A program made the position numbers and the translations under genes. From positions 62,001-126,000 of the forward strand of contig JAXHNP010000003.1 in NCBI GenBank assembly GCA_034520365.1: DNA of 64,000 nucleotides, given 5' to 3'. This document shows positions 13,081-50,570 of the stretch, piece after piece. Positions within the stretch are counted from its first letter, which is position 1. Every line of letters begins with the position of its first letter. Source of the DNA: Desulfobacterales bacterium. Its GTDB lineage: Bacteria; Desulfobacterota; Desulfobacteria; Desulfobacterales; Desulfosalsimonadaceae. The notes beneath the pieces are model-generated. The model saw only the letters and a list, made by a program, of their open reading frames with translations. It was not told the DNA's origin and did no database searches.

Positions 13081-14180
13081 AAATGACTCAATTGACTAAC
13101 CGGTTCATCAAATTATCGCTTTGGCTGGCGGGGGGCATCGCCCTCATTCTGGCGGTCCTGGCAGTTGCGGTCTGGACCCTTACCTTTCACCCCGAAGCCG
13201 TCCAGCCAGCGCCTGTTGTCTGCACCGGCCACCCCCAACCCCTTACCCCCGCTCAAACCGTTAAAATCCTTTCCTGGAACGTGCAATATATGGCGGGCAA
13301 AGGCTACTGGTTCTTCTACGAGGGCGGCACTGACACGGCACCGACCAAAGCCCATATCCGCCAGACCCTGGACCAAGCAGCCCGGGTAATTAAGGCGGAG
13401 GATCCGGATATCGTGCTTCTTCAGGAAATTGACGAGGCCGCCCGGCGCACCCATTATACCGACCAGCTGAAGCTGCTGCAAAAACACCTGCACCAACGCT
13501 ACCCCTGCCGGACCGAGGCGTTTTACTGGAAATCCGGTTTCGTGCCGCATCCGGATATCTGGGGGCCGGTGGGGATGAAGCTGGTCATTTTGTCAAAATA
13601 CCGAATTTCGAAAGCCACGCGGCATCAACTCCCGCTGATCCCGGAAAACTGGGTATCCCGTCAATTCAATCTCAAACGGACGCTGCTGGCGGCCCGGATT
13701 CCGTACAAGGACACCGAATTCGTCGTCATGAACACCCACCTATCTGCTTTTGCCCAGGGCACAGATACCATGGAGCGTCAGGTAGCCGAGGTCAAGTCGA
13801 TCCTGGCCGGCCATACGAAGGCCGGCCGCCCCTGGGTCTCCGGCGGCGATTTCAACCTTTTGCCGCCGGGAAACGCCTACAGCGAGTTGACAGAACAACA
13901 AAAATCTGCCTACCGGCCGCAAACCGAAATCAAACCGCTTATTGAGGCATTTCATGTGATTCCGGACCCAAAAGATCTGAGTGGCCCCAACCGCCGCAAT
14001 TGGTTTACCCATTTTCCCAATGATCCGGATATCAAGGCCCCGAATAAAACCATTGACTACATATTTTACGCGGATTCGCTAAAAAGAAAATCCGCCCATG
14101 TCCGGCAGGCGAATACCTGGACCATTTCCGACCATCTGCCGGTAGTGGCGGAATTTACGCTGCCGCGGGGTTCTAAGTAA
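13074..14180 (+). CDS. Endonuclease/exonuclease/phosphatase-family hydrolase
   Basis: A 368-residue membrane-anchored member of the EEP metal-dependent phosphodiesterase fold. One hydrophobic helix (residues about 15-37) is followed by the catalytic domain, with ILSWNVQYM, the metal-binding glutamate in LLQEID, GGDFNLLP, DYIFYAD and the terminal SDHLPVVAEF. Members hydrolyse nucleic acids, sphingomyelin or inositol phosphates; the external location suggests a phospholipid or extracellular substrate. The ATG at 13074 overlaps the MFS stop, and ATG 13083 is possible. The last codons lie inside a dispersed repeat (14171-14405). Confidence 0.8.
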   Translation: MLKMTQLTNRFIKLSLWLAGGIALILAVLAVAVWTLTFHPEAVQPAPVVCTGHPQPLTPAQTVKILSWNVQYMAGKGYWFFYEGGTDTAPTKAHIRQTLDQAARVIKAEDPDIVLLQEIDEAARRTHYTDQLKLLQKHLHQRYPCRTEAFYWKSGFVPHPDIWGPVGMKLVILSKYRISKATRHQLPLIPENWVSRQFNLKRTLLAARIPYKDTEFVVMNTHLSAFAQGTDTMERQVAEVKSILAGHTKAGRPWVSGGDFNLLPPGNAYSELTEQQKSAYRPQTEIKPLIEAFHVIPDPKDLSGPNRRNWFTHFPNDPDIKAPNKTIDYIFYADSLKRKSAHVRQANTWTISDHLPVVAEFTLPRGSK

Positions 14181-14405
14181 CTTCACGGTTTAAGGTCTTG
14201 GGTATTAGGTATTAGGTTAATTAAATCAATAATTTATGGTCGGCACGGTGGCCGACCCTACGATGGATCGGGTTTTTCCCCATTCGTAGGGCGGGCCACC
14301 GTGCCCGCCTGAAAAATAGATAGAACAAATTTATCGTGCCTTAGTGCCTTTAAAGTTATTTATACGCTCGGTCCCGGGCGCACGGCCCGGGGGGAATACT
14401 TCCAA
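14171..14405. repeat. ~235-bp composite repeat, copy 1
   Basis: The left arm (14171-14217) contains TTCTAAGTAACTTCACGG and GGGTATTAGGTATTAGG. The right arm (14345-14405) contains GCCTTTAAAGTTA, a hairpin CCCGGGCgcacGGCCCGGG and AATACTTCCAA. Both arms recur at 56534-56760 with a different centre. AAGTAACTT and its inverse near the right arm form short terminal inverted repeats. In this copy the centre is occupied by a one-ended relative of the 152-bp element. The left arm overlaps the stop codon of the EEP gene. Confidence 0.75.
14238..14338 (-). mobile_element. One-ended relative of the 152-bp inverted-repeat element
   Basis: The right end AGAACAAATTTATCGTG (14322-14338) matches, in reverse, 16 of 17 bases of the terminal repeat of the elements at 36274 and 39850. 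The adjoining TTTTTCAGGCGGGCACGGTGG (inverted) and GGTCGGCACGGTGGCCGACC blocks are also shared. The other terminus is missing and no 10-base target duplication is visible. It lies inside the composite repeat at 14171-14405, so it probably inserted there and later lost one end. Confidence 0.7.
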
Positions 14406-36263: not shown

Positions 36264-36435
36264 GAGAACATTTCACGGTAAATTTGTTCTATCTATTTTT
36301 CAGGCGGGCACGGTGGCCCGCCCTACGCGACAATGCCGACATTTTGTAGGGTCGGCCACCGTGCCGACCTTACATGCGAACAACCCCATGGTTATGGGGT
36401 TGTTCGCCAGAACAAATTCACCGTGGAGAACATTT
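36264..36435 (+). mobile_element. 152-bp MITE-like element, copy 1, with 10-bp target duplication
   Basis: The element spans 36274-36425. Its ends, CACGGTAAATTTGTTCT and AGAACAAATTCACCGTG, are inverted repeats with one mismatch in 17. It is flanked immediately by the perfect direct repeat GAGAACATTT (36264-36273 and 36426-36435), a 10-bp target-site duplication. Inside are two GC-rich inverted blocks (GGCGGGCACGGTGGCCCGCC and GGTCGGC...-type) and a perfect 14-bp hairpin at 36376-36407 with loop GGTT. It has no coding capacity. It sits between the hypothetical gene and femAB, in a gap otherwise empty. Confidence 0.92.
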
Positions 36436-36516
36436 TGCATAGTTTGACATTTGGTCAATTTTTTAATAAAGGAGGCGTTTTAAATTTTTTTAGACTCGAT
36501 CGAGACGGATAGATCT

Positions 36517-37668
36517 ATGCAAATAAGCGTTCACCCCAAACCGACCAAATATATTGAACCCGGCATCCATCTTCAGCAGTCCGCCTTCTGGGGACGGCTC
36601 AAAAAACAGCAGGGCCGTCAGGCCCGGGCCTTTGCCATAACCCCGACGGATTTACCGACCGAAGAGCTGCCGGTGACAGAGACGCTGCACGGCGCGGCCC
36701 AGTGGGAAAAAGCCCGGGCAAGCCATGACATGCTGGTGGTAATTCGCTCACTTGGTGCGGCGGGCAGCATGGCCTATGTCCCCTTCGGCCCGGAGCGGCT
36801 TCCTGATGCGGATCGCCGGGGCCGCTGGCTTGAACAACTGTCTGAACGTATTCGGCCGCATCTGCCGGCGAACTGTTTTTTCATCCGGTATGATCTGCCC
36901 TGGGAATCCCCATGGGCGTCGGATGGAAGCCGGTATGCCGAAAATGACATATGGATGGGCAAACCCCGGACAGGGATTCGTGAGATGCGCATGAACTTTG
37001 ACACCAAACGCTGGAACCTCCGCAAAGCGCCCACGGATCTTTTGCCCACGGATACGGTGATTCTGGATGTAACCACTGACCGGGACCGGCTGTTGAAACG
37101 GATGAAGCCCAAGACCCGCTATAACATCCGGCTTTCCGGCCGAAAAGGGGTGCGGGTGCGCGAAGCCGGTATCCAGGATCTGGCCGCCTGGTATGATATC
37201 TACTGTCAGACAGCGGCTCGGCACGGCATGATGCTAAACAGCCTGGACTATTTTAAAGCCGGGCTTGAAGTAAAAGCGGCAGACACCAGCTCTCCGGCAA
37301 GCATGCACCTGCTCTTGGCGGAAGTGGAGGGAAAACCTGTGGCCGGCATCCTCCTGGCGATCGCAGGCAGCCGGGCCACCTACCTTTACGGCGCCTCATC
37401 TTTAAGAAAAAGCCATCTGATGCCCTCCTATGCCCTTCAATGGGCGGCCATATGCAAGGCCAAGACTGTCGGCTGCTACGATTACGACCTCTTCGGCACA
37501 GCGCCCTATCCGGACCCCTATCATCCCATGTACGGCTTGTACCGGTTCAAAACCGGATTCGGCGGGGAGATGATTCACCGGCAAGGGTGCTGGGATTACC
37601 CCTATGATGAATCCCGCTATGACCTCTACCGGGCCCAGGAGATGGCAGGGCCCGCATTTGTTTCCTGA
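36517..37668 (+). CDS. FemAB-family (lipid II:amino acid transferase-like) protein
   Basis: A 383-residue member of the FemABX family, which contains two GNAT-like domains. Members transfer amino acids from tRNA to lipid II or act in exopolysaccharide/peptidoglycan modification. Matching segments are HLQQSAFWGRLKKQQG, RWNLRKAPTDLLPTDTVILDV, the RMKPKTRYNIRLSGRKGV motif and YLYGASSLRKSHLMPSYALQW. The C-terminal GLYRFKTGFGGE is also family-specific. It is monocistronic. Its stop is 5 bases from the convergent STAS gene. Confidence 0.85.
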   Translation: MQISVHPKPTKYIEPGIHLQQSAFWGRLKKQQGRQARAFAITPTDLPTEELPVTETLHGAAQWEKARASHDMLVVIRSLGAAGSMAYVPFGPERLPDADRRGRWLEQLSERIRPHLPANCFFIRYDLPWESPWASDGSRYAENDIWMGKPRTGIREMRMNFDTKRWNLRKAPTDLLPTDTVILDVTTDRDRLLKRMKPKTRYNIRLSGRKGVRVREAGIQDLAAWYDIYCQTAARHGMMLNSLDYFKAGLEVKAADTSSPASMHLLLAEVEGKPVAGILLAIAGSRATYLYGASSLRKSHLMPSYALQWAAICKAKTVGCYDYDLFGTAPYPDPYHPMYGLYRFKTGFGGEMIHRQGCWDYPYDESRYDLYRAQEMAGPAFVS

Positions 37669-37673
37669 AAATT

Positions 37674-38012
37674 TTAAAACCCCTTCAGCGCCTCCTCTTT
37701 GGATGGATAGATATCGATGATCCGGTTCATCCGCACCAGTTCAAAGAGCCGCTCGACATTTTTCTGTACGCTGCACAGTTTCAATTCCCCGCCCCGGTCG
37801 CCCAGCTGCCGCAGGCAGGACAAAAGCGCGCCGCACCCCGAGCTGTCCACAAACTCCACCCGGGTCAAATCAATTACCACCTTGTCATGCGATTGCAGGG
37901 TCTCGGCCATACTTTTTTTAAATTGCTCGCTGTTGCTTGCATCCAGGGCTTTTTCCCGCAGGTCCACAACCGTCACGCCCATATAGGTGTTAACTTTCAT
38001 TTTAACTGTCAT
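37674..38012 (-). CDS. STAS-domain anti-sigma factor antagonist (RsbV/SpoIIAA-like)
   Basis: A 112-residue cytoplasmic STAS protein. The phosphorylatable serine lies in LTRVEFVDSSGCGALLSCL, the D-S-S-G motif. It should be toggled between phosphorylated and free forms by the HATPase kinase part and PP2C phosphatase part of the gene immediately upstream in transcription, 65 bases away. No sigma factor is nearby, so the output may be another partner. Confidence 0.9.
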   Translation of the reverse strand: MTVKMKVNTYMGVTVVDLREKALDASNSEQFKKSMAETLQSHDKVVIDLTRVEFVDSSGCGALLSCLRQLGDRGGELKLCSVQKNVERLFELVRMNRIIDIYPSKEEALKGF

Positions 38013-38077
38013 TTGCCTGACTCCGTAGAATATATTGGATTGGATTATAGCATCTCATAAGTCATAAAAAAAACCGG

Positions 38078-39727
38078 CTAACACCAGCGGACCAGCATCC
38101 GGGCGCAGTTTTCCCCGTATTCGTTTCTGGAATAGGTAATATCATCCACCGACTGTTCAACAATATAGACCCCCATCCCTCCCTCTTTGGACCCGTCAAG
38201 CACCGGCGCGGGAACCTTGTCCGGGTCAAAGGGGTTGCCCCGGTCATAGAAAGAAAGCGTCATTTCCCGGGGATAGGCGATCGCCTCCAGGCGGACGGGG
38301 TGCCCCGGCTGGCTGTCATAGGCGTGGCGGATGATATTTGTGGTCAGCTCCACGGCGGCCAGCTCAATGCCCGCGATCCGGGGCTCATCAGAGGCCCGGC
38401 GCATGTATTTCTTCCCGAATATCCGAATAAACCGCCGAACCTTCTGCAATTCCTCCATGCGGCTGTCAAATACCATCGCCTGGCGGCCCAGAAGCTCAAG
38501 GGGCACGGCATTGGCCTCGATCTTGACCGGGATGCAGGTGAAATCATCCGCAAATTCCGATGAACCGGAAAAATCCCTTATCTCCCGGCGGATGGTTTGG
38601 ACCAGGCCCTCCGGCGTATCCGCCGCGTGCGCCTCTAACAATGCGATCAAGCGCTTTTCGCCGAACATTTCGCCGTCCGGGCGGCTGGCTTCCGTGAGCC
38701 CGTCCGAGTAAAACAAAAACAGATCTTCAGCCTCAAAGGAGACATTAAACTGCCGGAACGGCTTCTTCTCCGGAAACCCCAGGGGCATGTTTTCGCCTTT
38801 GAGCAGGCTGACCGAGCGTGTTCTATGATGAAAATGGAGGGGACGCACGTGACCGCAGTCAACGAATGTCAGGCGGTTTTGCTTGGGATAGAATCTGGCG
38901 TAAAAAAGCGTGACAAAGGATTCCAGTTCCTGGAGCTGGGCGATCATGTGGCTGTATACGGAATCCACGATCTCTTCGGGCGCGATGTTGACCCGGCCCT
39001 CAGAGGACAGCCGGGCTTCATTGACCACGCGGAGAAAATAGCTCTTCAGGGCGGCCCCGATAAATGCGGCCCGAATCCCTTTTCCCATGACATCAGCCAC
39101 CACCAGATCCATGGATTCCGAATCCAGGCGGATAAAATCATAAAAATCCCCGTCAATTGCCTGGGATGGAATGGTTAAGTGGGCGATTTCAAGCCCCGGA
39201 AAGTCCGCGGGCGGACGGCCCAGCAGCAGAGACTGCTGAATCCGGGAGGCCACATAGATCTCATTTTCCCGGGCTTCTTTAAGGCTTTCCTCCGTCTGCC
39301 GCAGGCGGATGGTCTGCTCAAAAGAGCGGACCGCATGGGTCACAAGCGCGGTGATCTGCGGGGCATGAAACGGCTTTACGATATAATCAAAGGCGCCATG
39401 CTTCATGGCATAGACCGCATCCGAAACCTCATCGCTGGCGGTCAGCATGATGGGCGACAAATCCGGGTAGGCCCGGTTGATGTAGTTCAAGCATTCAAGC
39501 CCGCTCATGCCCGGCATCTGGATGTCTAAAATCACCGCACAGATCTCATCTGACAGGTTTTCCACCGCTTCCGTGCCGCTTGCGACCGATATTGGCAGAA
39601 AGCCCGCCTTTTCAAGGGTCCGCTCCAGTATCCGGCGCGTGGTGGGATCGTCATCTGCAATGAGCACCCGGGGCGGGGATTCATCGGGCCTATCCGCTTC
39701 TCTGGTAAATGATTCAGATACCGTCAT
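38078..39727 (-). CDS. Response regulator with PP2C (SpoIIE/RsbU) and HATPase (RsbW-like) domains
   Basis: A 549-residue three-part signalling protein. A receiver domain spans about 20-135 (acidic patch ADDD, phospho-acceptor in AVILDIQMPG, lysine in YIVKPF). A PP2C-type SpoIIE phosphatase spans about 165-390 (DGDFYDF, VADVMGKG, DCGH, SDGLTEA, ADDFT). A GHKL ATPase spans about 410-545 (AVELTTNIIRHAY and GGMGVYIVEQ). It thus joins the phosphatase and anti-sigma kinase activities that usually sit on separate proteins, gated by a histidine kinase not seen here. The STAS protein downstream is the likely substrate. Confidence 0.92.
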   Translation of the reverse strand: MTVSESFTREADRPDESPPRVLIADDDPTTRRILERTLEKAGFLPISVASGTEAVENLSDEICAVILDIQMPGMSGLECLNYINRAYPDLSPIMLTASDEVSDAVYAMKHGAFDYIVKPFHAPQITALVTHAVRSFEQTIRLRQTEESLKEARENEIYVASRIQQSLLLGRPPADFPGLEIAHLTIPSQAIDGDFYDFIRLDSESMDLVVADVMGKGIRAAFIGAALKSYFLRVVNEARLSSEGRVNIAPEEIVDSVYSHMIAQLQELESFVTLFYARFYPKQNRLTFVDCGHVRPLHFHHRTRSVSLLKGENMPLGFPEKKPFRQFNVSFEAEDLFLFYSDGLTEASRPDGEMFGEKRLIALLEAHAADTPEGLVQTIRREIRDFSGSSEFADDFTCIPVKIEANAVPLELLGRQAMVFDSRMEELQKVRRFIRIFGKKYMRRASDEPRIAGIELAAVELTTNIIRHAYDSQPGHPVRLEAIAYPREMTLSFYDRGNPFDPDKVPAPVLDGSKEGGMGVYIVEQSVDDITYSRNEYGENCARMLVRWC

Positions 39728-39839
39728 ATTCGCAAAATTTTTTTCACATGGCGGCTGCGCTTTTATTTAAAACCATATCAACTATTTGCCAAATGCCCTA
39801 CTTTTACCCGACTCCACCTAAGGGGTCAATCGATTTTCA

Positions 39840-40011
39840 ATTCCGCCACCACGGTAAATTTGTTCTATCTATTTTTCAGGCGGGCACGGTGGCCCGCCCT
39901 ACGCGACAATGCCGACATTTTGTAGGGTCGGCCACCGTGCCGACCTCACATGCGAGAAACCCCATGGTAATGGGGTTTCTCGCCAGAACAAATTCACCGT
40001 GATTCCGCCAC
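39840..40011 (+). mobile_element. 152-bp MITE-like element, copy 2, with 10-bp target duplication
   Basis: The element spans 39850-40001, the same length as copy 1, with identical 17-bp ends. It is flanked by the perfect direct repeat ATTCCGCCAC (39840-39849 and 40002-40011). The internal 14-bp hairpin (39952-39983) differs from copy 1 at two stem positions on each side, and both changes keep pairing: AC/GT in copy 1 becomes GA/TC here. It lies between the divergent SpoIIE-type and DUF1207 genes and may affect their promoters. Confidence 0.93.
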
Positions 40012-40151: not shown

Positions 40152-41036
40152 GTGAACAAAACCAGATACATCAAACATTTAATCCTGGGAATTGCCATTC
40201 TTGGATTATCCCTGGGGATGACGGCATCGCCCGGTCCGGCCCTTGCCGAGCAGTCGCCCCGATCGCAATGGGAGATCTTTCCAAGCGGGGACGTATTCTC
40301 CCCCCTGGTGGCAGACCCTAAAGAGCCCCGGTTTTTTCTCAGCATCAATAATTACGACAATGAATTCAGAAGCGACTTCACCGGTGCATCCGTCGGATTC
40401 GGCGAAAACTTCGGTCTGATCAGAAAACATCTTGGGGATCAGCATGCCTGGCAGTTAAGTTTAAAAGGCGGACTTTTCTCCCAGTTTGATCTGAACTCCG
40501 ACTCCGACGATCTCCTTAATTCGGATTATAATATCGGTGTGACCTGGAATTACCGGATTGACGCCCTGTCCACCCGTCTTCGCGTCTATCACCAAAGCTC
40601 TCACCTGGGGGATGAATACCTTCTCAAGCATCCGCGGCTGGCAGATACCCGGACCAACTTTGACAATGAAGCCATTGACTTTCTGGCGGCGTTTACCTGG
40701 CAGCAGATCCGGACCTATGGCGGCCTCCATTTCCTGATAGAGCGCGATCCGGGAAATTTAGACCGCTGGGGCTATCAGGGCGGTATCGAATACCAGGGCA
40801 CAGGAGAGCTTCTACCCTGGGGGGCATTGGTCGCAGGCCTTGACATCAAAGGATTCCAGGAGCTTCACTGGACCCCCGGCTACAGCGTAAAGACCGGGAT
40901 CGCCTTCAAAGAGTTGGATCATCAGAGCCGCTATATTCAAGTCATGCTCGAATATTACAACGGATTCATCCCCTATGGCCAGTTCTATGACTATGACATG
41001 GAATCTTACGGGGCAGGCATCTATTTCGGCTTCTGA
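40152..41036 (+). CDS. DUF1207-family exported protein
   Basis: A 294-residue exported protein with a signal peptide (hydrophobic core LILGIAILGLSLGM, cleavage near PALA-EQ). The mature part is an outer-membrane-barrel-like beta protein matching DUF1207: WEIFPSGDVFSPLVADPKEPRF, SVGFGENFGLIR, STRLRVYHQSSHLGDEYLL and the terminal aromatic GAGIYFGF. I choose GTG 40152, five bases after GGAGG. The in-frame ATG at 40104 has no ribosome-binding site. Its 3' end overlaps the convergent dinB end by 16 bases. Confidence 0.82.
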   Translation: MNKTRYIKHLILGIAILGLSLGMTASPGPALAEQSPRSQWEIFPSGDVFSPLVADPKEPRFFLSINNYDNEFRSDFTGASVGFGENFGLIRKHLGDQHAWQLSLKGGLFSQFDLNSDSDDLLNSDYNIGVTWNYRIDALSTRLRVYHQSSHLGDEYLLKHPRLADTRTNFDNEAIDFLAAFTWQQIRTYGGLHFLIERDPGNLDRWGYQGGIEYQGTGELLPWGALVAGLDIKGFQELHWTPGYSVKTGIAFKELDHQSRYIQVMLEYYNGFIPYGQFYDYDMESYGAGIYFGF

Positions 41037-42193
41037 TCCTTTTCAAACAGCTCGGCTTTTTTCACCACATCCCGGCCAAAGCGCCGGGTAACGGCGTCAA
41101 CCGCACGGCCCAGCGCCTCCCATTTTAAATCCCCGGACGCCGGATCATCAAATAATGACATCTGAACGGGCGCGGTGTGATCAGATAAATCCGATGCGCC
41201 CATACCGATGAGCCGGACCGGCTGGGTGATTTTATACTCGGCCAGCAGCCGGCAGGCCGCCTTAAAAAGGGTTTCAGATGAGCGGGTCTGCCCGGCAAGC
41301 CCCATCTGCCGGGTAATCTGGGTGAAATCCGCGTGCTTTACTTTGAGCGTAACCGTCCGGGCTAAAAGTTCCTCCTTTCTCAGCTGCCGGCCCACGTCCT
41401 CGGCCTGCTTCAGCAGATAACGCCGCAAAAGCGCCATATCCCGCGTATCCGCCGGCAGGGTCTCCTCGCTGCTGACAGATTTTACCGGGCGAATCGTCCG
41501 GACCTCTGAATCATCAATACCTGCCGCCAGATCAGCCAGCCGCTTCCCGTATTTTCCAAACCGCCGGGTCAGCTGCTCTATCGAATACTTTTGAATATCC
41601 CCGAGCGTAGTTATGCCCAGCCGCTCCAGATGCTCCCGGGTATGGCGGCCTACCCCCGGGACCTTATTGACCGGAAGGCGGGCAATAAAATCAGGGACTG
41701 CCGGCTCGGCAATCACCGTCAGGCCATCGGGCTTATCCATGTCAGAGGCGATCTTTGCGAGAAATTTAAGCGGCGCAATACCCACCGTGCAGGTCAGCCC
41801 GGTTTCATCCCGAATACTTTCCTTAATCGCGCAACCGATCGCCTCCGGGGAGCCATGAAGTGTGCCGCATCCGGTGATATCCACATATGCCTCGTCAATT
41901 GAGACCGGCTCCACCAGCGGCGAAAAGCGGTCCAGGATGGTCATTACCATTTGGGATAACGCCTTGTACCGTTGACGCCGCGGAGGGCGGAAAACCCCGT
42001 GCGGGCACCGCTGTCTGGCCTGATACATGGGCATGGCTGAATGCACGCCGTACTTGCGGGCCTCATAGCTTGCCGCAGACACCACCCCCCGGCCGGACAT
42101 GCCCCCCACAATCACACATTTGCCGGCCAGCCCGGGGTTGTCCAGGACCTCGACCGAGGCAAAAAAAGCGTCCATGTCCACGTGTAGGATCAT
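41021..42193 (-). CDS. dinB: DNA polymerase IV (Y-family)
   Basis: A 390-residue error-prone translesion polymerase. Metal-binding residues are in ILHVDMDAFFASVE at the N-terminus and SIDEAYVDIT. The helix-hairpin-helix region KVPGVGRHTREHLERLGI and the little-finger domain follow. The C-terminus is polar and lacks an obvious beta-clamp motif, apart from VQMSLFDD near residue 345, which fits a QxxLF-type clamp-binding peptide. It converges with the DUF1207 gene. No LexA box was identified. Confidence 0.93.
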   Translation of the reverse strand: MILHVDMDAFFASVEVLDNPGLAGKCVIVGGMSGRGVVSAASYEARKYGVHSAMPMYQARQRCPHGVFRPPRRQRYKALSQMVMTILDRFSPLVEPVSIDEAYVDITGCGTLHGSPEAIGCAIKESIRDETGLTCTVGIAPLKFLAKIASDMDKPDGLTVIAEPAVPDFIARLPVNKVPGVGRHTREHLERLGITTLGDIQKYSIEQLTRRFGKYGKRLADLAAGIDDSEVRTIRPVKSVSSEETLPADTRDMALLRRYLLKQAEDVGRQLRKEELLARTVTLKVKHADFTQITRQMGLAGQTRSSETLFKAACRLLAEYKITQPVRLIGMGASDLSDHTAPVQMSLFDDPASGDLKWEALGRAVDAVTRRFGRDVVKKAELFEKDQKPK

Positions 42194-49975: not shown

Positions 49976-50570
49976 GTGTACGTTCCACGGCTAATTTGTT
50001 CTGTATCCAAATCGAAATCGAAATCGCTATCGGGATCGGGATCGAAATCGAAAAAATATGACCCTTAAACACGAAAAACTGGATGTCTATCGCCTTTCAA
50101 TAGGCTACGTTGCATGGGTTTACGAGAAGGCCGACAGCCTGAACGGAGTCCATCGGCCCACCCGGGATCAATGGCTTCGGGCCAGCCAGTCGATACCGCT
50201 CAATATCGCCGAAGGTAATGGCAAGACCGCGGAAGCCAACCGAAGGCGTTATTTCGAAATCGCTCGTGGCTCCGCGCTTGAGTGCGCGGCGATTTAAGAT
50301 GTGCTGGTTGTCGGCAAGGCGCTGGACAAGATGGAAAGCCGGAACCGCAAGGATGAACTCGACCGTATGGCCGCGATGCTCAGCCGTCTCGGCGGAAGAG
50401 GATACCAAGTTCGAGAGGATCAGGAAGTCTACAGTGTCGATTTCGATCCCGATAGCGATTTCGATCCCGATTTCGATCCCGATAGCGAAGAAAACGAATC
50501 CCAACCTTAGCGTTAACAGGACCGGGGGTATGGATTTGGCGTTAGAACAAATTAGCCGTGGTTTGCGTTC
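49976..50570 (+). mobile_element. 575-bp inverted-repeat element carrying a four-helix-bundle gene
   Basis: The element spans 49986-50560. The ends, CACGGCTAATTTGTTCT and AGAACAAATTAGCCGTG, are perfect 17-bp inverted repeats that match those of the 152-bp elements at 15 of 17 bases. The flanks GTGTACGTTC (49976-49985) and GTTTGCGTTC (50561-50570) agree at 8 of 10 bases, a degraded 10-bp target duplication. Inside the ends, hexamer arrays of the type ATCGAA/ATCGGG (about 50011-50054) and their inverse (about 50437-50488) bound the gene, so a transcript could fold back on itself. The element has no transposase. Confidence 0.88.
50058..50510 (+). pseudogene. Four-helix-bundle (23S rRNA intervening-sequence-protein type) gene with in-frame stop
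   Basis: The reading frame encodes a member of the S23/IVP four-helix-bundle family: KLDVYRLSIGYVAWVYE, RASQSIPLNIAEGNGK, RYFEIARGSALECAAI. Codon 80 is TAA (50295-50297) where the family has a glutamine (AAIQDVLVV). The same frame then continues with DVLVVGKALDKM to 50510. The C-terminal tail, about 20 residues of alternating Asp with Phe/Pro/Ser, is the translation of the hexamer repeat. A single C-to-T change explains the stop. It could be a nonsense mutation or a suppressed codon. No ribosome-binding site is visible. Confidence 0.82.

What the first reader, a model, noticed from the sequence alone, without database searches (positions are those of the whole stretch)
36264..40011. Two 152-bp elements with perfect 10-bp target duplications
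Copies at 36274-36425 and 39850-40001 have equal length and the same ends, and each is flanked by its own perfect 10-bp direct repeat (GAGAACATTT and ATTCCGCCAC). Different duplications show two independent transposition events in the recent past. They lie only 3.4 kb apart in the same orientation. No transposase with matching ends is in the window.
Basis: seen in the sequence. Interest (0 to 1): 0.75.

Follow-up and report, generated by a model that had tools for sequence, protein, structure and literature searches.

The report
Small jumping DNA with swappable cargo
The two 152-base repeats belong to a family of roughly a hundred tiny transposons in this bacterium that share their ends and 10-base target duplications with an unusual transposase gene joined to an anti-phage-type protein, and some of them have swapped their inner hairpin for a gene usually known from insertions in ribosomal RNA.

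Summary
In detail: both 152-bp elements, their 17-bp inverted ends and their perfect 10-bp duplications are where stated. The interpretation (recent independent transposition) is supported and can be extended.

The genome holds at least 42 copies, plus two forms with the same ends: a 147-bp form (about 26) and a ~565-bp form (about 36). A third element in the window, 49986-50560, is of the latter kind. Of 69 copies with both ends located, 58 carry a 10-bp duplication matching at 8 or more positions. Three same-genus genomes show the empty site for one copy.

The missing insertion sequence was found. Contig C8 carries one damaged ISAs1-type transposase whose right end is identical. Relatives in other bacteria (1.9 kb, same ends, 10-bp duplications) encode a DruA domain joined to the transposase, which would be complete only after a -1 frameshift at A_AAA_AAG.

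The ~565-bp form carries a 23S-rRNA-intervening-sequence-protein (IVP) gene where the small forms have their first hairpin.

So these are MITEs (miniature transposons) of a DruA-ISAs1 group: a new variant of a known kind. That the resident C8 copy moved them is inferred, not shown.

The parts
36264..36273 (.). 10-bp target duplication GAGAACATTT, left copy (right copy 36426-36435)
   Evidence: read directly
36274..36425 (+). 152-bp element, copy 1; ends 36274-36290 and 36409-36425; hairpin arm 1 36302-36326/36346-36370; hairpin arm 2 36376-36389/36394-36407
   Evidence: RNA fold -88.3 kcal/mol, z -11.2
36426..36435 (.). 10-bp target duplication, right copy
39840..39849 (.). 10-bp target duplication ATTCCGCCAC, left copy
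39850..40001 (+). 152-bp element, copy 2; ends 39850-39866 and 39985-40001; arms 39878-39902/39922-39946 and 39952-39965/39970-39983
40002..40011 (.). 10-bp target duplication, right copy
49976..49985 (.). target duplication GTGTACGTTC (right copy 50561-50570 GTTTGCGTTC, 8 of 10 match)
49986..50560 (+). 575-bp element of the IVP-carrying form (F565): same end type, long inverted simple-repeat hairpin around the gene, right arm shared with the 147-bp form
50058..50297 (+). 23S_rRNA_IVP (PF05635) open frame of that element, ended by an in-frame TAA at 50295-50297; 14 of the 16 copies read run on to 144-150 aa

Best explanation
The 152-bp units are MITEs: non-coding transposons that move only when a transposase is supplied from elsewhere. 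The transposase belongs to a DruA-ISAs1 group. It recognises ends of the type CA(C/G)GG(T/C)(A/G/T)AATTTGTTCT, inserts what lies between two such ends, and makes a 10-bp staggered cut that becomes the duplication. In the full-length insertion sequences a DruA (DUF4338) domain and the first part of the transposase, with the first catalytic D, are read in one frame; a -1 slip at CAA AAA AAG is needed to add the part with the second D and the E. Between its ends a MITE can fold as an end stem with two hairpin arms. Arm 1 is exchangeable: in the 147- and 152-bp forms it is a REP-like palindrome; in the ~565-bp form it is a long hairpin holding an IVP gene, which was thereby amplified. SHOWN: ends, duplications, copy numbers (lower bounds), empty sites, matching ends and duplications of DruA-ISAs1 elements elsewhere, frame switch at a conserved A-run, shared right arm of the 147- and 565-bp forms. 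INFERRED: that the resident C8 transposase (or a lost intact copy) moved them, that the slip occurs in cells, the catalytic roles of D, D, E, and how arm 1 was exchanged.
For: 10-bp duplications matching at 8 or more positions: 24 of 30 (152 bp), 18 of 22 (565 bp; 8 of 30 loci dropped because an end was not at the expected place), 16 of 17 (147 bp); mispaired flanks 2 of 1943, 0 of 1916, 16 of 1887. Seven of the 8 dropped loci lie in longer derivatives (726-741 and 1076-1106 bp) that have their own 10-bp duplications, 9 or 10 of 10 matching. Empty site in 3 of 3 same-genus genomes for one copy. On C8 the end CACGGCTAATTTGTTCT begins 15 bp after the transposase stop. The part after the slip scores 148.7 bits on ISAs1 model NF033564 (cut-off 70); the part before it 42.9; PF13808 and DruA PF14236 also match. 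Homologues: 23 of 33 loci examined; 20 of 23 have the end within 3 mismatches downstream of the transposase; 5 of 23 have both ends and a perfect 10-bp duplication (L144, L147, L149, L153, L158), four of them with both frames open. CAA AAA AAG in 17 of 17 loci where the motif was found, of 34 scanned. The D / D-E motifs lie before / after the slip in 6 of 6 loci looked at. Shared right arm (66 genome hits, 0 in control).
Against: The only DruA-ISAs1 copy found in this genome lacks a recognisable left end and has an in-frame stop in its DruA part, so it cannot move itself and may not make full protein. G034 and G013 have their own bursts (80 and 66 end-like sites) but no match to this transposase; they do have DruA hits, those looked at being of other kinds or fragments. 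Three homologues with both ends (L142, L146, L148) show no matching duplication, and 3 of 23 loci lack the end. L151 has six A's instead of seven at the slip position; 17 of 34 loci showed no motif, many being truncated; in L141 and L160 the zero frame does not stop within the 20 codons shown, and in L141 the -1 frame is closed. Six of 30 152-bp copies score below 8 of 10 at exactly 10 bp; four of these fit 9, 11 or 12 bp.
Confidence: 0.86

Rival explanations
1. The canonical ISAs1 element on contig C6 (1310 bp) moves the MITEs in trans.
For: It has a 383-aa open frame without stops, perfect ends and a 10-bp duplication GGCATCAGGA, and its ends start CAGGGTAA as many MITE ends do.
Against: After the first 8 bases its ends (CAGGGTAACCGCATTT) differ from the MITE ends, which match the DruA group over all 17. 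Its transposase is only 39% identical to the C8 one.
Confidence: 0.1
2. The resident C8 transposase is still active and the elements still move, its transposase part starting at an internal ATG behind a GGAGG site.
For: The three D, D, E motifs and the slip site are kept; GGGAGG precedes an ATG at the start of the transposase part; the 565-bp form is young (median 0.9% from its consensus).
Against: The internal start is not conserved: a start codon at this place was found in 3 of 15 loci looked at, with GGAGG only in L108 (L145 has AGGAG somewhat further up). Loss of the left end suggests decay.
Confidence: 0.4
3. They are REP/BIME-type palindromic repeats or regulatory RNA elements kept for a cellular function rather than transposons.
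For: Strong fold (z -11.2); arm 1 is REP-like and similar sequence without the ends occurs in relatives; insertions avoid long stop-free stretches (6 of 68 junctions against 110 of 135 flank midpoints); arm 2 shows compensating changes at two pairs.
Against: Terminal repeats, 10-bp duplications and empty sites show insertion. In arm 2 the mismatched combination is also common (A with G at one of the two pairs in 9 of 30). No Rfam match at gathering threshold in the window. Gene avoidance is also what survival after random insertion would give.
Confidence: 0.08

Closest known systems
MITEs of ISAs1-family insertion sequences
   Same: Short, non-coding, inverted ends, fixed-length target duplication, many copies, ends shared with a full-length insertion sequence.
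   Different: The parent is a DruA-ISAs1 fusion with a frame switch, and one form carries an IVP gene. Searches for ISAs1 with DUF4338, MITE or frameshifting gave 0, 6 and 6 papers; in the passages read no such element appears, and most of these papers were seen as listings only.
ISAs1 family insertion sequences (ISAs1 of Aeromonas salmonicida, 1223 bp, table passage in PMC2556355)
   Same: Transposase matches the NCBIfam ISAs1 model; ends begin CAGGG/CACGG; the canonical C6 copy also has a 10-bp duplication.
   Different: 1.9 kb, extra DruA domain, two frames apparently joined by a -1 slip.
23S rRNA intervening sequences (IVS) with IVP gene
   Same: IVP open frame (PF05635) flanked by inverted repeats that form one long hairpin.
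   Different: Here the hairpin sits inside transposon ends with 10-bp duplications that differ from copy to copy.
Druantia anti-phage systems (DruA)
   Same: DruA domain (PF14236).
   Different: Here DruA is part of a transposase frame; other Druantia genes were not looked for.

Membership tests
MITE | Short, no complete gene, terminal inverted repeats | tested here: met
   152 bp, 17-bp ends 16/17 paired
MITE | Target duplications of constant length at many sites | tested here: met
   58 of 69 at 10 bp with 8 or more matches
MITE | Ends shared with an autonomous element | tested here: met
   C8 right end identical to an end of the 147/565-bp forms; L144 right end identical to the 152-bp left end. 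Full-length partners with both ends found only in other bacteria
MITE | Mobilised in trans by that element | not testable with these tools
   needs a transposition assay
ISAs1 family (the partner) | Transposase over the curated ISAs1 model cut-off | tested here: met
   NF033564 148.7 bits against 70 on the part after the slip; the part before it alone 42.9, below the cut-off
ISAs1 family (the partner) | 8-10 bp duplications and ends starting CAGGG (recalled definition) | tested here: met
   10 bp in 5 of 23 homologue loci examined, no match in 3 more with both ends; C6 canonical copy 10 bp
ISAs1 family (the partner) | Single open frame in an element of about 1.2-1.3 kb (recalled; 1223 bp for ISAs1) | tested here: not met
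   about 1.9 kb, DruA domain, two frames; so a divergent subgroup rather than a typical member
23S rRNA IVS (the 565-bp form) | IVP gene within a hairpin-forming inverted repeat | tested here: met
23S rRNA IVS (the 565-bp form) | Lies inside an rRNA gene | tested here: not met
   window copy: no rRNA (or other Rfam) match in the whole window. Other copies were not tested one by one, but their flanking duplications differ
REP/BIME | Palindromic unit without target duplication, tied to a RAYT (Y1) transposase (recalled) | tested here: not met
   whole element has 10-bp duplications; only arm 1 is REP-like. A RAYT gene was not searched for

The most novel reading that the evidence does not exclude
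A DDE transposase of a DruA-fused, frameshift-controlled ISAs1 group keeps a modular shell (end stem plus two hairpin arms) whose first arm can be exchanged. By taking up an IVP hairpin the shell turned a ribosomal-intervening-sequence type element into a spreading cargo transposon, giving IVP genes a general route of dispersal. DruA of the Druantia defence system would then derive from a transposase accessory domain, which also accompanies IS66, DDE_5 and Tn5-like transposases.
Probability: 0.3. Interest if true: 0.75.

Novelty: new variant of a known kind. Interest (0 to 1): 0.57.

Why it matters
It links three things usually treated apart: MITEs, the anti-phage domain DruA, and the orphan IVP gene family. 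The full-length elements give a compact, testable transposition system with defined 17-bp ends. They also suggest that DruA works with transposases, which bears on its role in Druantia. The IVP-carrying form shows a gene family without a known mover apparently spreading by ordinary DDE transposition.

Tried and rejected
Decay of the C8 transposase by a random frameshift: I first read it so, but homologues switch frame at the same run of A's, so I take that frameshift as programmed; the in-frame stop in DruA and the missing left end remain as damage.

PF01609 hits on C7 and C2 (L107, L109-L111) as partners: no MITE-like end within 4 mismatches in the loci.

Single unpaired ends as hints of a long element: those read mostly belong to another repeat family (F3) with an internal end-like stretch.

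Purifying selection on IVP copies after insertion: not seen. 28 of 30 copies compared, 31 non-synonymous to 17 synonymous unique changes against 30.9 to 15.9 expected, p 0.88. Long-term selection is strong: dN/dS 0.03-0.06 against 3 stand-alone cassettes, with dS of 1.0-1.4.

Downstream stem-loop as slip stimulator: energies of the 70 bases after the site range from -2.9 to -17.8 kcal/mol over 9 loci, with no common shape that I could see.

Structure of the DruA part: AlphaFold model with mean pLDDT 48.1, too poor; no fold search made. A PDB sequence search for DruA gave one hit at E 0.43. The GNAT assignment of DUF4338 is from a passage of PMC10853773.

Plasmid search with the 152-bp element: no match. 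Rfam on the window: none.
Full report
Observation. Both elements, their ends and their duplications are as described. End-like sites in the window number 8 against 0.21 expected. The genome (4.33 Mb, 8 contigs) has 286 end-like sites within 2 mismatches against 1 in the reversed control. The two copies are 96% alike.

Families. One search lists 40 places covering at least 129 of 152 bases at 91-100% identity; only 40 of 252 first-look candidates were scored, so this is a lower bound, and one search lists two more (C7:369970, C2:511038). I call this form F152. Two further forms share the ends. F147 has CACGGCTAATTTGTTCT at one end and CAGGGCAAATTTGTTCT, CACGGTAAATTTGTTCT or a near variant at the other. 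F565 includes window 49986-50560; (again 40 scored) lists 40 places matching at least 546 of its 575 bases at 89-100%, some being halves of dimers. A pattern for the right arm common to F147 and F565 has 66 hits and 0 in the control. By my count of that listing 38 are of the F565 type (some two to a dimer) and 28 of the F147 type, of which one has 3 mismatches and is doubtful and one lies inside an F565 dimer. So there are about 36 F565, about 26 F147 and at least 42 F152 elements, roughly a hundred or more; not every one was checked for both ends. Median divergence from consensus is 2.6% (F152, 30 copies), 3.4% (F147, 17 copies) and 0.9% (F565, full-length copies among the 28 with the core). 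The F152 maximum of 38% in that script is probably a wrongly oriented copy, since alignment A1 shows none so different.

Transposition. At exactly 10 bp, 24 of 30 F152, 18 of 22 F565 and 16 of 17 F147 copies match at 8 or more positions; mispaired flanks do so in 2 of 1943, 0 of 1916 and 16 of 1887 draws. Eight of 30 F565 loci were dropped there because an end was not at the expected place. Seven of these lie in derivatives of 726, 740, 741, 1076, 1076 and 1106 bp with their own 10-bp duplications (9 or 10 of 10); for L074 none was found. So the moved length is flexible. For the L022 insertion, G001, G002 and G003 all have continuous flanks with the 10 bp once, diverged at one to two positions. 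At window copy 2, G002 and G003 have 28 and 74 bp between aligned parts of genes that are about 1.3 kb apart here, without end-like sequence; the extra DNA here also includes a gene. Of 68 insertions, 6 junctions lie in a long stop-free stretch against 110 of 135 flank midpoints: a rough measure of gene avoidance, which may be survival rather than targeting.

Relatives. G034 has a 150-bp and G013 a 160-bp version. In the distinct loci read, 6 of 10 (G034) and 8 of 12 (G013) have a duplication with 9-10 of 10 matches; one and three more fit if shifted by one base; four do not. End-like sites (pattern CASGGTAAATTTGTTCT, 1 mismatch): G000 194, G034 80, G013 66; 11 of 60 genomes, G000 included, have any. 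G001 has one 229-bp relative with a 9-bp duplication.

The partner. PF01609 gave 6 places in the genome. One, on C8, is followed by CACGGCTAATTTGTTCT beginning 15 bp after its stop. Its parts match DruA (PF14236), DDE_Tnp_1_assoc and DDE_Tnp_1; the NCBIfam ISAs1 model scores 148.7 bits on the part after the slip and 42.9 on the part before (cut-off 70). In some searches this transposase and DruA were each found once in the genome, apart from a 39% identical canonical ISAs1 on C6 (1310 bp, CAGGGTAACCGCATTT, duplication GGCATCAGGA). Public genomes gave 33 loci, 17 of them titled as Methylococcales relatives, others as Nitrospira, Desulfobacteria and various Proteobacteria. Of the 23 I examined, 20 have the MITE end within 3 mismatches behind the transposase. 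Five have both ends and a perfect 10-bp duplication: L144 (1927 bp, CTACGTTCTG), L147 (1911), L149 (1926), L153 (1916), L158 (1500, with broken frames). L142, L146 and L148 have both ends but no matching duplication. The L144 right end is identical to the left end of the window elements.

Frame switch. In L144, L147 and L153 DruA and the start of the transposase lie in one open frame, as they do by eye in L142, L146 and L148-L150. That frame runs through CAA AAA AAG and in 15 of 17 loci stops within the next codons shown; the rest of the transposase continues in the -1 frame. The slip sequence is the same in 17 of 17 loci where the peptide motif was found, of 34 scanned; L141 is broken in the -1 frame, and L151 has one A fewer. 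The first D motif lies before, the second D and the E motif after the slip in 6 of 6 loci, so only a slip product would be complete. A passage of PMC3281130 (2012) says such products had been reported only for IS1 and IS3. A plasmid of Candidatus Thiodictyon syntrophicum has a more distant DruA-ISAs1 element (2057 bp, ends 12 of 17 alike, duplication GATACCCTGG); it has no slip run at that place, and its frame changes further on, which may be damage. RefSeq names its first open frame an ISAs1 transposase.

State of the resident copy. No left end was found, the 10 bp next to the right end occur once in 7 kb, and the DruA part has one in-frame stop. The transposase part keeps the D, D, E motifs and the slip site and has GGAGG before an ATG. 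It may be a remnant or a still working helper in trans; this is not decided.

Modular cargo. F152 folds as an end stem with two arms (RNA -88.3 kcal/mol, z -11.2). The window F565 copy folds alike, with a long hairpin around the IVP gene in place of arm 1 (z -5.2). F147 and F565 share the left end and about 50 bp of right arm. IVP: PF05635 at 1.1e-18, PDB relative 2gsc at 2.4e-7. Of 28 comparable copies 25 have no stop in the compared 378 bases, and changes since amplification look neutral; yet dN/dS against three stand-alone cassettes is 0.03-0.06. So the gene was long under selection and has not visibly been since the burst.

Literature. Searches for ISAs1 with DUF4338 (0 papers), DruA with transposase and Druantia (9), DUF4338 (3; 2 with transposase), ISAs1 with MITE (6), ISAs1 with frameshifting (6), ISAs1 with target duplications (1) and IVP terms (1, 1 and 4 papers) did not show this system in what I read. 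I read passages of PMC8565338, PMC10853773, PMC12774648, PMC9208149, PMC11270868, PMC3281130 and PMC2556355; the rest I saw as listings. ISfinder and subscription papers could not be searched, so a prior description of DruA-ISAs1 elements is possible.

Verdict. A real, well-supported family of miniature transposons, whose parent and cargo are more interesting than the two repeats themselves. New variant of a known kind.

Noticed in passing
L173-L192, Pfam: DruA (PF14236) lies upstream of IS66 transposases (L178, L182, L183, L185) and is fused to DDE_5 (L177) and Tn5-like (L181) transposases as well as to ISAs1; it looks like a general transposase companion. In L173 the downstream frame matched no Pfam family.
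   Followed up: partly
window 14170-14400; 11 distinct sequences (17 hits) aligned: A further repeat family (F3) begins CTTCTAAGTAACTTCACGG or similar, contains the F152 left part ending in the 17-bp end, and mostly continues into CCTCAGTGCCTTTAAAGTTA; I saw no 10-bp duplication around the inner end. Ends of the whole unit not settled.
   Followed up: partly
window 36376-36407 and 39952-39983; 30 copies in A1: Arm 2 exists in matched states (AACAA/TTGTT, AGAAA/TTTCT, AAAAA/TTTTT) and a mismatched one (AGAAA with TTGTT); double changes that restore pairing suggest palindrome correction by template switching or exchange between copies.
   Followed up: partly
L204 (C1), L205 and L206 (C3): Three stand-alone IVP cassettes, 77-79% identical in DNA to the window element, with no transposon end seen beside them; flanks such as GCTGGGCGTTGGGGC and CCCAACCAAGCGTTCCAGGCGACGC look like integron attC sites (recalled, not tested).
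   Followed up: no
window 40211-41040: The gene beside copy 2 has a 91% identical second copy at C6:317451-318280 and is missing between the same neighbours in G002 and G003.
   Followed up: no
L207, L208, L209, L071, L072, L079: Dimeric (1076-1106 bp) and 726-741-bp derivatives of F565 with their own target duplications; the dimers share the inner junction GGATTTGTTCTGTATCC, so they probably formed and then moved as units.
   Followed up: yes
L131 (C6:938993-940302): Canonical ISAs1 element with open frame, 1310 bp, perfect ends CAGGGTAACCGCATTT, duplication GGCATCAGGA.
   Followed up: yes
G004, G012, G025: The REP-like arm 1 (about positions 30-96 of the 152-bp element) occurs at 76-80% identity in relatives without the rest of the element.
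   Followed up: no
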